Below are positions 49,331-54,084 of a stretch of 64,000 nt of DNA, piece after piece. Both the position numbers and the translations under genes were made by a program. Under the pieces are notes generated by a model. The model did not search any database. It had not been told where the DNA came from and was given only the letters and a program-made list of their open reading frames with translations. Origin of the DNA: Halichondria panicea (Eukaryota; Porifera; Demospongiae; Suberitida; Halichondriidae); assembly GCF_963675165.1 (NCBI RefSeq), contig NC_087380.1, positions 4,641,371 through 4,705,370 on the forward strand, written 5' to 3'. The stretch's first letter is position 1, and every line of letters starts with the position of its first letter.

Positions 49331-49617
49331 CAGAGGAAAAGTACATGCAGGCAGCTGGGGTACGTATCACAGGACCTAGCCACTGATATTAAGTAAGGGA
49401 AAAATTTTAAATACATTCTATACTCTCTTTTAACAGCCCAAGCATTTTAACAGCCCAAGCAGGAGCATCAATTGGGGTTTCCCAAAAATTCGCACCTTTT
49501 TAGCGACGAGTCTGAACTCATCTAATTCTGCAAAAATAGAATACTGTTAATTGTTATGCTTCTTTGACCAACTCAAGACACACTACTATAGGTTGTCTTC
49601 CTCGTCAGAGTCATATA

Positions 49618-49645
49618 CAGTGCATCCAGTCTAAAGAGTAGAATA
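49618..49645 (+). repeat. Left terminal inverted repeat
   Basis: 28 bp, identical to the inverse of 54055-54082, preceded by TA. Confidence 0.95.
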
Positions 49646-49983
49646 GTATATCTCATTCATTTGTGCAAATTCATGAAATTTGTGATGATATTTCAATTTA
49701 GTTCGCATGCATAAGCCCAGCCAACAGTATGAAAACGCTGTAATGAGGCTGAGGAGCGCAAACACTACTTTTACCTGCAGTTTGCAGTGAGCGGCCATCT
49801 TGAATGTGACGTATGCAATAAATTGGAAAATTTTGAGACGTCACAACACTGAAAAATGCACGTGAGCCCCTCGCCCCCACATGCACAATACAGGAAAATT
49901 TAAATAGAAAAGCAGCACAGACACATTACTCTAATAACTAGACAGAGTTCCAGTTGGAGATACAAGCCAGTTGGAGATACAAG
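49646..49983 (+). promoter_or_regulatory. Likely 5' flank/promoter of the transposase
   Basis: 338 bp of non-coding sequence between terminal repeat and ATG. It contains AGCGGCCATCTTGAATGTGACG (about 49790-49811; a YY1-like AAnATGGC on the reverse strand) and a CRE-like GAGACGTCAC (49835-49844). Motif matches only. A microduplication (CAGTTGGAGATACAAG twice) lies at 49951-49983. Confidence 0.35.
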
Positions 49984-52445
49984 ATGATATCAAGTGCAAG
50001 TGCAAGTGCAAGTTCTACTTCAACCAGTTCTTTTCAGGACAAATCTCTACCCAGAAAGAGGCAATCTGCTGACCAACAGCTGACTGATGTCAGCAACCAA
50101 CTACCAGCCAAAAGGCACTGCAGTAGCCGAGCTGTAGTGTCCATAACTCAGGAGTTGAAACGAAAATCTCCAAGAGGTGATTCCTCTGCGCAGTTAAGGC
50201 CTGGGTCAGGCACTGATAAGATTAATTTTATTCATTGCCAACATTTTATGTAGATCATGTAGATCGTGTAGTGTTAATGAAAATTCATAATGTTTATTAA
50301 TGTTATTCATTGCATGTGACGTCATAAGGTCAATGTATTTGCTTAGCTAGCTGCTAGAACTATTATAGATTATCTTTGGCAACAAATACGGCGGACTTAA
50401 ACAAGGTAAGAGTAGCTGTTTAGGCCCTCAAAAGATAGAGTATGTTGTTATGATTATGTTTCCTTGATGGGAAGTAAAAATGTCCAAAACTTTCTTAGCT
50501 ATGCTAGCTTCTTTAGCTCTGACAGCCACTCTAGAGGTAGGCTATTTTGTGTATCTCAAGAATACAATAACTCCTACTCTTCCCATCAAGGATACTAGTA
50601 CCTAGCTATGAGATGTTCATCTAGCCTTGTTTTTGAAGCTTGATCTTGGCATCTTCAACACCGTATTTGCACTTCTCTCTCTGAAAGTGCCATGACGTCA
50701 TCACCATTTATGGGACTAATTAGCATAATTGAATTAAGCTAATTAGTTTTTTGGAAAAATAAAACATTGAGCTTCATTTTGGATCATTTTGATGCAGCAT
50801 ACACTGTATATTGCAAATAATACAGCAGTATGAACATAGTGTAAATTTTGGTGTTGAAATCTGGACCCGGGCCTTAAGTGCGCAGAGTCTACTAAGGCCA
50901 ATGAAGTACGACACACCTTTAAGCAGCAGGTGACCCGAGTAAGTACTGCAGAGGCGGACTGCAGCAATCTGAGGTCAATGAAGCGCGGTGTATATAAAGA
51001 AGGTGGCAGAAGACTCGAACAGTATATCGACAAAAACACCACACTTGAAGTGCAGAAAGCATTTGCACTAGTAATATTTGGGCAATGTATAACCACCGAT
51101 AAAATGGGCATCATTGAGGCTACTAGAGTAGCATGCAAGTTCTCAGGATTTAGTGCTGAAGTAATAAGGAGATGGGCAACGAATGTATTCGATTTATTTG
51201 GGAATGTCTCTTGTGTTGAGGATGTAGACGAAGACGATCTTGTAGAAGTACTGTCCTCCAAAAGGGGTTGTCATTCAAAGGTCATGTCACTCATAAACGA
51301 CGAGCAATTTTGTATTAAGGCCACTAAATATGTCCGGCAGAATGGGTACAGGAAGGGTGAGCCGAATTTGACTTTGACACAATTTTTGTGAGTGGATCGA
51401 GGAAGATCAAAACATCAAAGTTAGTGAGCAAACAGCATCAACATGGTTGCGAAAACTGGGATTTTCATATAAACAGTTTAGCAAAGGGGCGTACTTCGAT
51501 GGAAACAATCGAGAGGACGTTGTTGAAGCACGAAAAAATGATTGCACCTTAATGGAAGAATTGGATCCACGTCTAATAACCTTCGACAGAAGCACACCAT
51601 TGAGTAATGAGCGGCCAATAGTTCGAATATTCCATGATGAGTCAACTTTTTTTGCCAATGCTGATCAGTCCTTCCACTGGGCTGACGAAGGAATGCAATT
51701 ACTAAAACAGAAGTCACTGGGGCAGGCATTAATGGTTTCGGACTTCATTGATGAGGTTGATGGATATTTACGACACAATAGAGAAGAAGCGAGAGAATAT
51801 CTTGAGCATCAACATATGATAGAACAAGTCAAGAAATCTATAAAACCTAACACTACAGCACTATTTATATTTGACAACGCACCATCTCACATGAAGAAGG
51901 CAAACGATGCACTCAACGCAGATGCAATGAACGTAAACCCGGGAGGCAAACAGCCAGTAATGAGACCAACTTTCTATAATGGTGAGGTTCAGGAGATGAA
52001 TCTTCCGAACGGGACGCCTAAAGGAATGAAGATGGTATTAGAGGAGAGGGGAGTCTGTACGCAAGGAATGGTGGCTAGAGACATGACGGCAAGATTAAAA
52101 ACATACGAAGATTTTAAAAGTAGTAAACCGATATTGAGCGAACTAATTGAAAGTAAAGGACATAAATGTGTGTACATACCAAAGTTTCACTGTGAACTAA
52201 ATCCCATTGAGAGATGCTGGTGCGAGGCCAAAAAATACACACGAGCACATGCAAATGGAAGTATTGTACGACTAAGAAAAATAGTACCCATAGGACTGGA
52301 CACAGCAACAAAAGACATGATTAAAAAATTCTTTCAAAAGAGCAAGGACTATGAAACAGCATATAGAGAGGGATATACAACAGAAAATGTAGATAGTATT
52401 GTAAAGTTATACAAGTCACATAGAAGAGTAGGTAGTAAGGACTGA
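49984..52445 (+). pseudogene. Tc1/IS630-superfamily (DDE_3) transposase, near-intact
   Basis: ATG at 49984 starts MISSASASASSTSTSSFQDK, a Ser-rich N-terminus. At 50198-50873 a TTAA element interrupts it. From 50880 it continues (ANEVRHTFKQQVTR, GVYKEGGRRLEQYIDKNTTL, HTH-like FGQCITTDKMGIIEATRVAC). One extra T in the T5 run at 51381-51385 shifts the frame. The rest is open from 51447: FSYKQFSKGAYFDGNNREDV, catalytic Asp in IFHDEST (51636), Asp in IFDNAPSH (51873), Glu in ELNPIERCW (52209). MNVNPGGKQP and LYKSHRRVG follow. The D-D-E triad is complete. The second-Asp-to-Glu spacing is 111 residues, against 34-41 in classic mariner/Tc1. It cuts and pastes the element in the nucleus. Confidence 0.9.
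50198..50873. mobile_element. 676-bp TTAA element inserted in the transposase gene
   Basis: TTAA flanks both ends (50194-50197, 50874-50877). The ends are GGCCTGGGTCAGGC and, inverted, GGCCCGGGTCCAG. The imperfect repeat extends outwards (CTCTGCGCA on the left, its inverse TGCGCAGAG on the right), so part of the symmetry belongs to the target. A partial copy is at 45307-45649. Non-coding. It is younger than the host transposon and breaks its transposase. Confidence 0.78.
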
Positions 52446-52497
52446 TCACATTTTTAATATAATTATAACGCAGCAACAAAAATAATTATGTTTGCAA

Positions 52498-53459
52498 CTA
52501 CACCATTACTTCCATGTACAGACAACGGATCTGGAAGGGACTGGACTCTGTTGCGTCAGAATTAGTTGTATCAGTTTGTCGTGGCCGAGGGGGGGAAACA
52601 ATAAGTATGTCACTGTTAAGTGTTGTAGCGTCATTGTCAGTAGAGTCTAGTCTAGGGGAGGAATCAATAATAAGTACGTCACTGTTAAGTCTCGTAACGT
52701 CACTGTCAGTAGAGTCTAGTCTAGGGGAGGAATCAATAAGTACGTCACTGTCTGTAGAGTCTGGTCTAGGGGGGGGGGAACAATGATTACGTCACTGTCA
52801 AGTCTCTTAATGTCACTGTCAGGGTCTATACGTCGGCGCTTAGGGGATGGAGGTTCTGTAAATTGTTTGTCATCGTCTAGTCTCTGATATTCAGCAAAAG
52901 ATTCTCTTCTGTCACATTCTGATATGGTCACAGTAGGAGGACACGGTGGAGACTGCTGAGGTGATGGAGTGACCAACTGTAATAATATGCTTTTAAAGCA
53001 CTGTTTAAAATAGAAATAATAACAACCTGGACTCCACGCAGTGTAAACAGCCTCTCTCGCACAGTCCTCAGACTGTCTGGCTGACCAAACACAGACACAC
53101 GCACATCACACACAGAAGAAGACCATCTCCGATTTCCGCCCTGACTGTACACAGCTCCAGTAATAACGCTGTGATCAAAACTTCATAAATGATATTCAGA
53201 AATAAAAGTATACTTACCCTGTTGCAAACAAGCCTGATCGTAGCAGGGGAGCTAGGTAAGCAGCATCTTCCCTAGCGAGGTGACCCAACTTTTCACTGAC
53301 ATATGAGGACCGAAGGTAGACTGCCACACAGTTGGGGTCACGGTTGTTGGTCTCTAGATAGAGCACTACCCTCCCACCACCACCCACAGCAGATACAGCA
53401 ACGTCATAAAATCGAACGCCTTTGATAATAGACAAAAAAGTAGCAAGCAGTACTTCCAT
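52498..53459 (-). CDS. HIRAN-domain protein with acidic SIM-like tail
   Basis: Three exons, all in phase: 53459-53218 (donor GTAAGTA), 53168-53027 (after GATCACAG; donor GTTGTT), 52976-52498 (after ATTACAG). Introns are 49 and 50 bp. Exons 1-2 form a HIRAN domain: KGVRFYDVAV, VVLYLETNNRDPNCVAVYLR, KLGHLAREDAAYLAPLLRSG, VITGAVYSQGGNRRWSS. HIRAN domains bind DNA ends in Rad5/HLTF-type repair factors. Exon 3 has a basic SPKRRRIDP (possible NLS), then repeats SDVIIVPPP, SDVLIDSS, SDVLIIDSS, SDILIVSPP. A C10 run (52777-52786) is out of frame by two; with C8 the protein is 286 aa, otherwise about 214 aa. Convergent with the transposase. Confidence 0.82.
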
Positions 53460-54054
53460 TCTTTCTAGCTTTCTATACTACAATCTGGTTTCGCACCAAA
53501 GTAACACGAGGTTACCGCGTACGACGTGACACAAACGTCACATACTCGCGGTTTTGGACCGTGATGTCATGAAAACTGGTTGATTGTACATAAAATTAAT
53601 TATCTCCGGAAATAAAGTTTTTCTGGACAAGTTTTTCTTATCAAAAGTTAGACAATTTATTCAAGCTTACTCTGTGTAATTTTTAGACCTTAGCCGTTAG
53701 ATTTTCTTCAAATCTCTCCCTAACCGAAACGGCACTAAAAACTAGCAATTTTGAGCACTGCGGAGGATGTGTAGATATGTAAGCAATATCAAACCTTCCA
53801 TAAGATGGCCAATTTATCTATAGATGTTGTGACAAAGTCCCAGACCTTAGCCGGAAACCGTTGGTCTTTTCTCTCCCTAACCGATTACCCACTATAACAT
53901 TTGTTTACTGTTTTATTAGTCACTGCAAACCCACCACCTTATGTTTCCATGGAAACAATTGTAGCTTGTTCTTTCACCTACACAAATGGTATCAGTACAT
54001 TTTCTTAAAAATGTTCTAATCATAAGATATTTACAAATATTCATGAATTTGTGG
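53460..54054 (-). promoter_or_regulatory. Likely 5' flank/promoter of the HIRAN gene
   Basis: About 600 non-coding bp inside the right end. They contain CRE-like words (ACGTGACACAAACGTCACAT, 53522-53541) and a direct repeat AGACCTTAGCCG ... TCTCTCCCTAACCGA at 53686-53732 and 53841-53884, which may be subterminal transposase sites. Inference from position. Confidence 0.35.
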
Positions 54055-54082
54055 TATTCTACTCTTTAGACTGGATGCACTG
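54055..54082 (-). repeat. Right terminal inverted repeat
   Basis: 28 bp, the perfect inverse of the left end, followed by TA. Confidence 0.95.
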
Positions 54083-54084
54083 TA

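What the first reader, a model, noticed from the sequence alone, without database searches (positions are those of the whole stretch)
49618..54082. Complete Tc1/IS630-like transposon that carries a HIRAN-domain gene
Seen: perfect 28-bp terminal inverted repeats, TA duplication, a DDE transposase on the plus strand and a three-exon minus-strand gene whose first two exons read as a HIRAN domain. The stop codons are about 50 bp apart. Known: Tc1/mariner elements normally carry only a transposase; HIRAN domains bind 3' DNA ends in Rad5/HLTF-type repair proteins. Inference: the HIRAN protein is an accessory factor that may handle excision ends, recruit repair or protect the element. I know of no described Tc1/IS630 family with a HIRAN gene.
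Basis: partly seen in the sequence, partly recalled or inferred. Interest (0 to 1): 0.88.

Follow-up and report, generated by a model that had tools for sequence, protein, structure and literature searches.

The report
Transposons carrying a DNA-end-binding accessory gene
A jumping gene here carries, besides its transposase, a second gene for a HIRAN domain (a domain that in repair enzymes grips broken DNA ends), and the same kind of gene turns up in several unrelated jumping-gene families of this genome.

Summary
Window 49616-54084 is a TA-flanked element with perfect 28-bp ends. It holds a DDE_3/IS630-like transposase gene and a convergent three-exon gene whose first exon passes Pfam's HIRAN cut-off. 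This copy's genes are broken: an insertion and a frame change in the transposase, a frame change in HIRAN exon 3.

HIRAN belongs to the element. Both long copies found with these ends carry it, as do diverged relatives on C17, C13 and (degraded) C2, in the same place and orientation. It shows purifying selection between copies. Eleven related transposase rows lack it.

HIRAN genes also lie in a Tigger element on C15 (same HIRAN lineage, same intron position), in pogo-like elements where HIRAN is fused to a Ulp1-type protease, and in an unplaced family with 9-bp target duplications. Of 29 HIRAN loci examined (32 found), 26 lie in transposon-like settings; none of the 32 is within 200 kb of a SNF2 match.

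Best reading: HIRAN is a recurrent, selected transposon accessory that probably grips 3' ends made by excision and influences their release and repair. The function is inferred. Five searches of the PMC library showed no paper linking HIRAN to eukaryotic transposons.

The parts
49616..54084 (.). whole element with its flanking TA duplication
   Evidence: inverted ends and TA on both sides
49618..49645 (+). left 28-bp terminal inverted repeat
   Evidence: dispersed in the genome
54055..54082 (-). right 28-bp terminal inverted repeat
   Evidence: dispersed in the genome
49984..52445 (+). IS630-like DDE transposase gene, interrupted (insertion at about 50184-50884, frame change near 51378-51391)
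   Evidence: DDE_3 8.4e-12; IS630 model 1e-16 but under its cut-off; C6 copy aligned; ATG and stop checked
50184..50887 (.). insertion with 24-bp inverted arms inside the transposase exon, absent from the C6 copy
53218..53459 (-). HIRAN gene exon 1
   Evidence: PF08797 1.8e-7, over cut-off; ATG and splice site checked
53027..53168 (-). HIRAN gene exon 2
   Evidence: aligned with C6, C13 and C17 copies; splice sites
52498..52976 (-). HIRAN gene exon 3: basic stretch SPKRRR and acidic tail with repeated hydrophobic cores; frame change at 52769-52778 (first frame ends at 52716)
   Evidence: SIM-like motif statistics weak

Best explanation
The element is a two-gene cut-and-paste transposon of the IS630/Tc1-mariner group. 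Two genes run inward from the two ends: the transposase and a small HIRAN protein. Shown: the HIRAN gene lies inside the ends, is kept at one place and orientation across families whose transposases are about 50-60% identical, shows purifying selection, and is mirrored by HIRAN genes in other transposon kinds. Inferred: the protein recognises the short 3'-OH ends that transposase cleavage leaves at the donor break or on the excised element. There it acts as an adaptor that helps free the cut ends from the transposase and influences their repair, so that the donor site is closed or refilled and the transposon persists. The acidic SIM-like tail here and the Ulp1-type protease fused to HIRAN in pogo-like elements suggest that this works through SUMO or ubiquitin signals; that last step is the weakest.
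For: Same gene pair between the same ends in both long copies, window and C6; same order in C17 and C13, and degraded in C2. HIRAN dN/dS 0.007/0.037 (window/C6) and 0.21/1.46 (window/C13). HIRAN-bearing transposases fall in one clan, 100/100. Independent HIRAN genes convergent with Tigger and pogo-like transposases. HLTF's HIRAN has a pocket for one single-stranded dinucleotide (PMC4666394, section 16), and HLTF needs it to clear Cas9 from cut DNA with a free 3' end (PMC11237066, passages). Positions of Arg71, Asn91, Asp94 and His110 are kept (alignment).
Against: No expression or binding data. Asn90 and Tyr93 of HLTF are replaced (Thr, Arg), Tyr72 is Phe, and it was the Asn90/Asn91 double change that abolished HLTF function, so 3'-end binding may be altered. 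No SNF2 motor is present, although HLTF's clearing activity needs one. The pogo type with the protease is a different HIRAN lineage, so its function may not carry over. SIM-like motifs exceed shuffles in the window only (0.7%), not in C6 (14%) or C13 (12%). Both long copies have broken transposase genes.
Confidence: 0.5

Rival explanations
1. Counter-silencing: HIRAN brings the accessory protein to transposon DNA or to replication forks, where the SIM-like tail or the linked Ulp1-type protease disturbs SUMO-dependent silencing or host restriction. It protects expression of the element rather than helping repair.
For: HIRAN fused to a Peptidase_C48 domain in pogo-like elements, with His, Asp and Cys of a Ulp1-type site invariant in the 3 aligned. 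SUMO takes part in transposon silencing in animals (recalled, not looked up).
Against: No protease in the window's family. The SIM-like motifs are weak evidence. Nothing here ties the protein to chromatin.
Confidence: 0.2
2. Transposition co-factor: HIRAN is a DNA-binding subunit that recognises the element's terminal DNA, or a regulator of transposase assembly or dosage, without a role in repair.
For: The gene starts beside one end and the transposase gene beside the other (window; similar in C6 Tigger, C15 Tigger and C5 pogo-like elements). Two-protein transposons exist (recalled).
Against: Related 2.4-3.0-kb elements do without it. HIRAN is known for ends and single strands rather than for sequence.
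Confidence: 0.2
3. Passive cargo: a captured gene fragment with no function for the transposon.
For: Some HIRAN copies are decayed (C13, C2).
Against: dN well below dS between diverged copies; recurrence in several transposon kinds with convergent layout.
Confidence: 0.08
4. Host HIRAN gene into or beside which a transposon landed.
For: The gene has introns.
Against: The same pair lies between the same ends on another contig (C6), and diverged pairs lie on C17, C13 and C2. No HIRAN place is within 200 kb of a SNF2 place.
Confidence: 0.01

Closest known systems
Sailor (DD82E) of the IS630-Tc1-mariner group (PMC8533490; section 11 and passages seen)
   Same: DDE transposase with a long second-D-to-E spacer (111 here; the paper gives DD78E to DD111E); one sponge element of 4,115 bp is listed in its table
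   Different: Here TA and not TATA flanks, ends begin CAGTGC and not GT or CC; the word HIRAN does not occur in that paper
Ciliate Tec and TBE elements (Tc1/mariner superfamily; PMC7325037, passages)
   Same: Tc1/mariner-type elements with extra genes besides the transposase, in Tec one of them on the opposite strand
   Different: Their extra genes are a recombinase, a zinc finger protein or unknown; no HIRAN is mentioned in the passages seen
Ginger1, Mutator and Helitron elements with Ulp1 or OTU proteases (PMC2836005, passages)
   Same: DNA transposons carrying a SUMO/ubiquitin-type protease; its authors suggest a role in activating repair
   Different: There the protease is a domain of the transposon's own large protein; here (pogo-like elements) it follows HIRAN in a separate gene. 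The word HIRAN does not occur in that paper
HLTF/Rad5 repair proteins (PMC4666394 section 16; PMC11237066 passages)
   Same: HIRAN domain; several contact positions kept
   Different: No SNF2 motor or RING; a small separate protein encoded by a transposon

Membership tests
IS630-Tc1-mariner group | DDE transposase of this type | tested here: met
   Pfam DDE_3 over cut-off; NCBI IS630 model 1e-16 but 61 of 100 bits needed
IS630-Tc1-mariner group | TA target duplication and terminal inverted repeats | tested here: met
IS630-Tc1-mariner group | cut-and-paste mobility | not testable with these tools
   only dispersed copies seen
Sailor (DD82E) | second-D-to-E spacer of 78-111 residues | tested here: met
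   111 residues; range from PMC8533490
Sailor (DD82E) | TATA target duplication | tested here: not met
   left flank TATA but right flank TATT; C6 and C17 share TA only
Sailor (DD82E) | ends beginning GT or CC | tested here: not met
   ends begin CAGTGC
Sailor (DD82E) | transposase groups with Sailor in a tree | not tested
   no Sailor sequences were at hand
HIRAN domain (PF08797) | profile match over the curated cut-off | tested here: met
   window exon 1 31.3, C17 33.5, C6 33.0 bits; cut-off 24.7
HIRAN domain (PF08797) | known 3'-end contact residues | tested here: inconclusive
   Arg71, Asn91, Asp94, His110 positions kept; Asn90, Tyr93 replaced; Tyr72 is Phe (alignment)
HLTF/Rad5 family | HIRAN together with SNF2 ATPase | tested here: not met
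   0 of 32 HIRAN places within 200 kb of the 83 SNF2 places; the search can miss exons
Ulp1/SENP protease (in pogo-like elements only) | Peptidase_C48 match | tested here: met
   over cut-off in L019 and L024 (23.5 and 23.4; cut-off 20.7); not reported for L022 and L023, nor for an L018 fragment
Ulp1/SENP protease (in pogo-like elements only) | catalytic His, Asp, Cys | tested here: met
   H235, D253, C290 invariant in the 3 aligned; that these are the catalytic ones is recalled

The most novel reading that the evidence does not exclude
HIRAN genes form a pool of accessory genes shared among unrelated eukaryotic DNA transposons (IS630-like, Tigger, pogo-like, and a family with 9-bp target duplications). 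They have passed between superfamilies as modules and, alone or fused to a SUMO/ubiquitin-type protease, make up a transposon-encoded system that captures cleaved 3' ends and steers host repair. In this genome HIRAN is chiefly or wholly a transposon domain.
Probability: 0.4. Interest if true: 0.9.

Novelty: new variant of a known kind. Interest (0 to 1): 0.76.

Why it matters
Cut-and-paste transposons depend on the host to repair the breaks they make, and how they influence that repair is largely open. A transposon-borne DNA-end domain kept under selection, and recurring in unrelated transposons with or without a SUMO-type protease, gives a direct handle on that question. It also suggests that some uncharacterised HIRAN proteins in animal genomes may be transposon products rather than repair genes.

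Tried and rejected
Host-gene reading of HIRAN: rejected by the C6, C17, C13 and C2 copies and the SNF2 control.

The C1 rows (T014, T016) as HIRAN-less counterexamples: their transposase matches stop at query positions 417 and 367 of 504 and no element ends were found in the fetched DNA, so their lack of HIRAN says little. A test that held only the five HIRAN rows together was rejected (p-AU 1.6e-6), because these two rows fall inside the clan; the clan of seven has 100/100.

Structure prediction of exon 1 alone: mean pLDDT 40, useless; no fold search was run.

Relatives elsewhere: viral contigs with the transposase, with HIRAN-C48 and with its alignment, and genome contigs with that alignment gave none. 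These are viral and prokaryotic collections, so this says little about other animals.

SIM motifs: weak statistics (the window value joins the tail across its frame change). PDB support for the C48 part is weak (best E 0.1).

Papers: five searches on HIRAN with transposons or transposases and one on Ulp1. Judged by titles and abstract starts, none listed describes a HIRAN in a eukaryotic transposon, but one search listed 30 of 173 papers (many probably by chance word starts) and one search listed 12 of 1,576, none holding 'HIRAN domain'. One hit, PMC13237565, is an author's first name. PMC9587614 and PMC2292703 were seen only as listings with abstract starts. The organism was not identified; the sponge remark in the Sailor row is from the paper, not about this genome.

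Corrected on checking: the stop codons are 52 bp apart, not 49.
Full report
WHAT IS THERE. The window holds a transposon at 49616-54084: TA, a 28-bp inverted repeat, 4.4 kb, the same repeat inverted, TA. On the plus strand is a transposase gene, about 49984-52445. On the minus strand is a gene of three exons (53459-53218, 53168-53027, 52976-52498). The two converge; the transposase stop and the last minus-strand stop are 52 bp apart. The transposase matches Pfam DDE_3 (8.4e-12) and, under its cut-off, NCBI's IS630 model (1e-16, 61 of 100 bits). There are 78 residues between the first two D and 111 between the second D and the E. Exon 1 of the minus-strand gene matches HIRAN PF08797 over the curated cut-off (1.8e-7). 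A profile of four such genes finds solved HIRAN structures: 3k2y at 0.0011 and HLTF entries at 0.014-0.021.

STATE OF THIS COPY. The transposase exon is split by an insertion with 24-bp inverted arms that the C6 copy lacks. Its frame changes near 51378-51391. HIRAN exon 3 changes frame at ten G. In the C6 copy the HIRAN frames are open, but its transposase is split by about 6 kb of other DNA and holds stops. Neither long copy looks autonomous today.

IS HIRAN PART OF THE ELEMENT? The 28-bp end occurs 130 times in the genome with up to 3 mismatches; 100 places are printed. Among those 100, 23 inward-facing pairs lie within 12 kb: 19 of 697-795 bp, two of about 1.6 kb, the window (4,465 bp) and C6 (10,335 bp). 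I read one short copy and both 1.6-kb copies; they align to the window element only in its terminal parts, so they look like non-autonomous derivatives. Both long copies hold transposase and HIRAN. Diverged relatives carry the pair at the same place: C17 (transposase 49% identical over 455 positions; own ends TACAGTGCAACAACC...; HIRAN 33.5 bits) and C13 (59% over 436; long inverted arms with decayed tips; HIRAN in broken frames). A more degraded one is on C2, seen with my own profile (best piece 9.1e-5) but not by Pfam on the piece tried. In a tree of 18 transposase rows the clan of window, C6, C13, C17, C2 and two truncated C1 rows has 100/100 support. HIRAN was found in 5 of these 7 and in 0 of the other 11 (my profile found only matches of E 1 or worse near those 11, apart from the L004 case below). 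Five of the 11 have both ends in the fetched DNA and are 2.4-3.0 kb long. L004, one of the 11, has a HIRAN of another class about 5.6 kb away, which I do not count as its own.

SELECTION. Window against C6: 5 synonymous and 3 amino-acid changes over 183 codons, dS 0.037, dN 0.007 (few events). Window against C13, only the 60 codons readable in frame: dS 1.46, dN 0.21; a further 24 codons gave 1.84 and 0.44. The gene was constrained while the families diverged.

HIRAN ELSEWHERE IN THE GENOME. PF08797 gives 32 places. I fetched DNA around 29; the other three have the same or nearly the same score and span as fetched ones. Of the 29, 14 have a DDE_3- or DDE_1-type transposase beside the HIRAN: 12 convergent, one on the same strand (L025), one divergent (L036). 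Six have the convergent partner ORF of an unplaced family. Six more lie between matching inverted ends without such an ORF found. That makes 26. The remaining three (L004, L035, L037) show no full setting of their own; L035 and L037 have one matching end each, and all three resemble HIRANs of the 26. The nearest of 83 SNF2 places is 201 kb from a HIRAN place, so no HLTF-like gene was recognised; this search goes exon by exon and can miss matches.

KINDS. (A) The window's family. (T) Tigger: C15:1702747-1706058, ends ATACAGTAGAACCTCGCTAATCC, with a HIRAN gene read as two exons, convergent with a DDE_1 transposase; and on C6, L050+L029 1407-4082, DDE_1 5.1e-39. The C15 HIRAN has its intron at the same position and phase as the window's (my reading) and joins family A in the HIRAN tree (100/98; profile match 2.4e-27), while its transposase is of another superfamily and no piece of the window's transposase was found there (best E 1.7). 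The program warns of long branches in this tree. The C6 Tigger HIRAN sits with the pogo type, a weakly supported group (63/46). So one HIRAN lineage occurs in two transposon superfamilies; on the Tigger side this rests on one copy. (B) Pogo-like: HIRAN followed in the same ORF by a Peptidase_C48 domain. Pfam reports C48 over its cut-off in L019 and L024 but not in L022 or L023, nor in a fragment of L018; tblastn relates the C48 part of L018, L019, L022, L023 and L038 to that of L024. HIRAN itself is over the cut-off in L018, L019, L022 and L023 and under it in L024. The best preserved, on C5, has ends TACCGTATAGCG... at 2012-2056 and 4982-5026 of L024+L047, with TA beside them, and both ORFs open: HIRAN-C48 334 aa, DDE_1 transposase 504 aa. 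(C) A family with ends CAGAGGAGGT and exact 9-bp flank duplications in two copies (L032, L033); its partner ORF has no Pfam match, so that it is a transposase is not shown.

HOW IT MAY WORK. HLTF's HIRAN has a cavity for one single-stranded dinucleotide, bordered by Tyr72 and Tyr93, and loses function when Asn90 and Asn91 are both changed (PMC4666394, section 16). HLTF needs HIRAN and a released 3' end, and its motor, to remove Cas9 from cut DNA, and the isolated domain competes with it (PMC11237066, passages). Excision by Tc1-type transposases leaves 2-3-nt 3' overhangs (recalled), which would suit such a pocket. In the window protein the positions of Arg71, Asn91, Asp94 and His110 are kept, Tyr72 is Phe, and Asn90 and Tyr93 are Thr and Arg (alignment, numbered by me from the paper's residues). 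I therefore favour a 3'-end adaptor that influences release and repair of transposition breaks. Lacking a motor, it would have to work by binding, shielding or recruiting. The SUMO link is suggestive only: the C48 fusions, the earlier proposal that Ulp1 and OTU domains in transposons may activate repair (PMC2836005, passages), and SIM-like cores in the tail that exceed shuffles in the window (0.7%) but not in C6 (14%) or C13 (12%).

KNOWN OR NEW. Extra genes in Tc1/mariner elements are known from ciliates (PMC7325037, passages); pogo elements are described as having one or two ORFs encoding transposases (PMC7386202, passages); Ulp1/OTU domains are known from Ginger, Mutator and Helitron elements. 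For HIRAN in eukaryotic transposons I saw nothing in the PMC library. Subscription papers and Repbase reports were not searchable, so an earlier mention cannot be excluded.

Noticed in passing
window 50184-50887: Insertion of about 700 bp with 24-bp inverted arms (CTCTGCGCAGTTAAGGCCTGGGTC) inside the transposase exon, absent from the C6 copy.
   Followed up: partly
L024+L047 2012-5026 (C5); also L018, L019, L022, L023, L038: Pogo-like elements with a gene fusing HIRAN to a Ulp1-type protease, convergent with the transposase.
   Followed up: yes
L020, L021, L026, L030-L033, L035, L039, L041-L043: HIRAN genes of an unplaced family with ends CAGAGGAGGT and 9-bp target duplications; in six loci a convergent partner ORF (TT[DN]DVEC...) without a Pfam match.
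   Followed up: partly
L053 and the pairs: 19 short copies (697-795 bp) with the window element's ends; the one read (L053) derives mostly from the HIRAN-side end and stops short of the HIRAN start codon.
   Followed up: partly
L027 1634-2580: A 947-bp unit with pogo-like ends (TACCGTACC...) that holds a HIRAN reading frame and no transposase.
   Followed up: partly
L003 6775-7500: Tandem repeats of about 40 bp (GATGGTATTAGAGAGATTCGCAGTGGAAACTCTTCCATA) inside the C17 element, between transposase and HIRAN.
   Followed up: no
L036 3254-4301: Long cysteine/valine-rich low-complexity repeat joined to the frame of a pogo-like transposase fragment.
   Followed up: no
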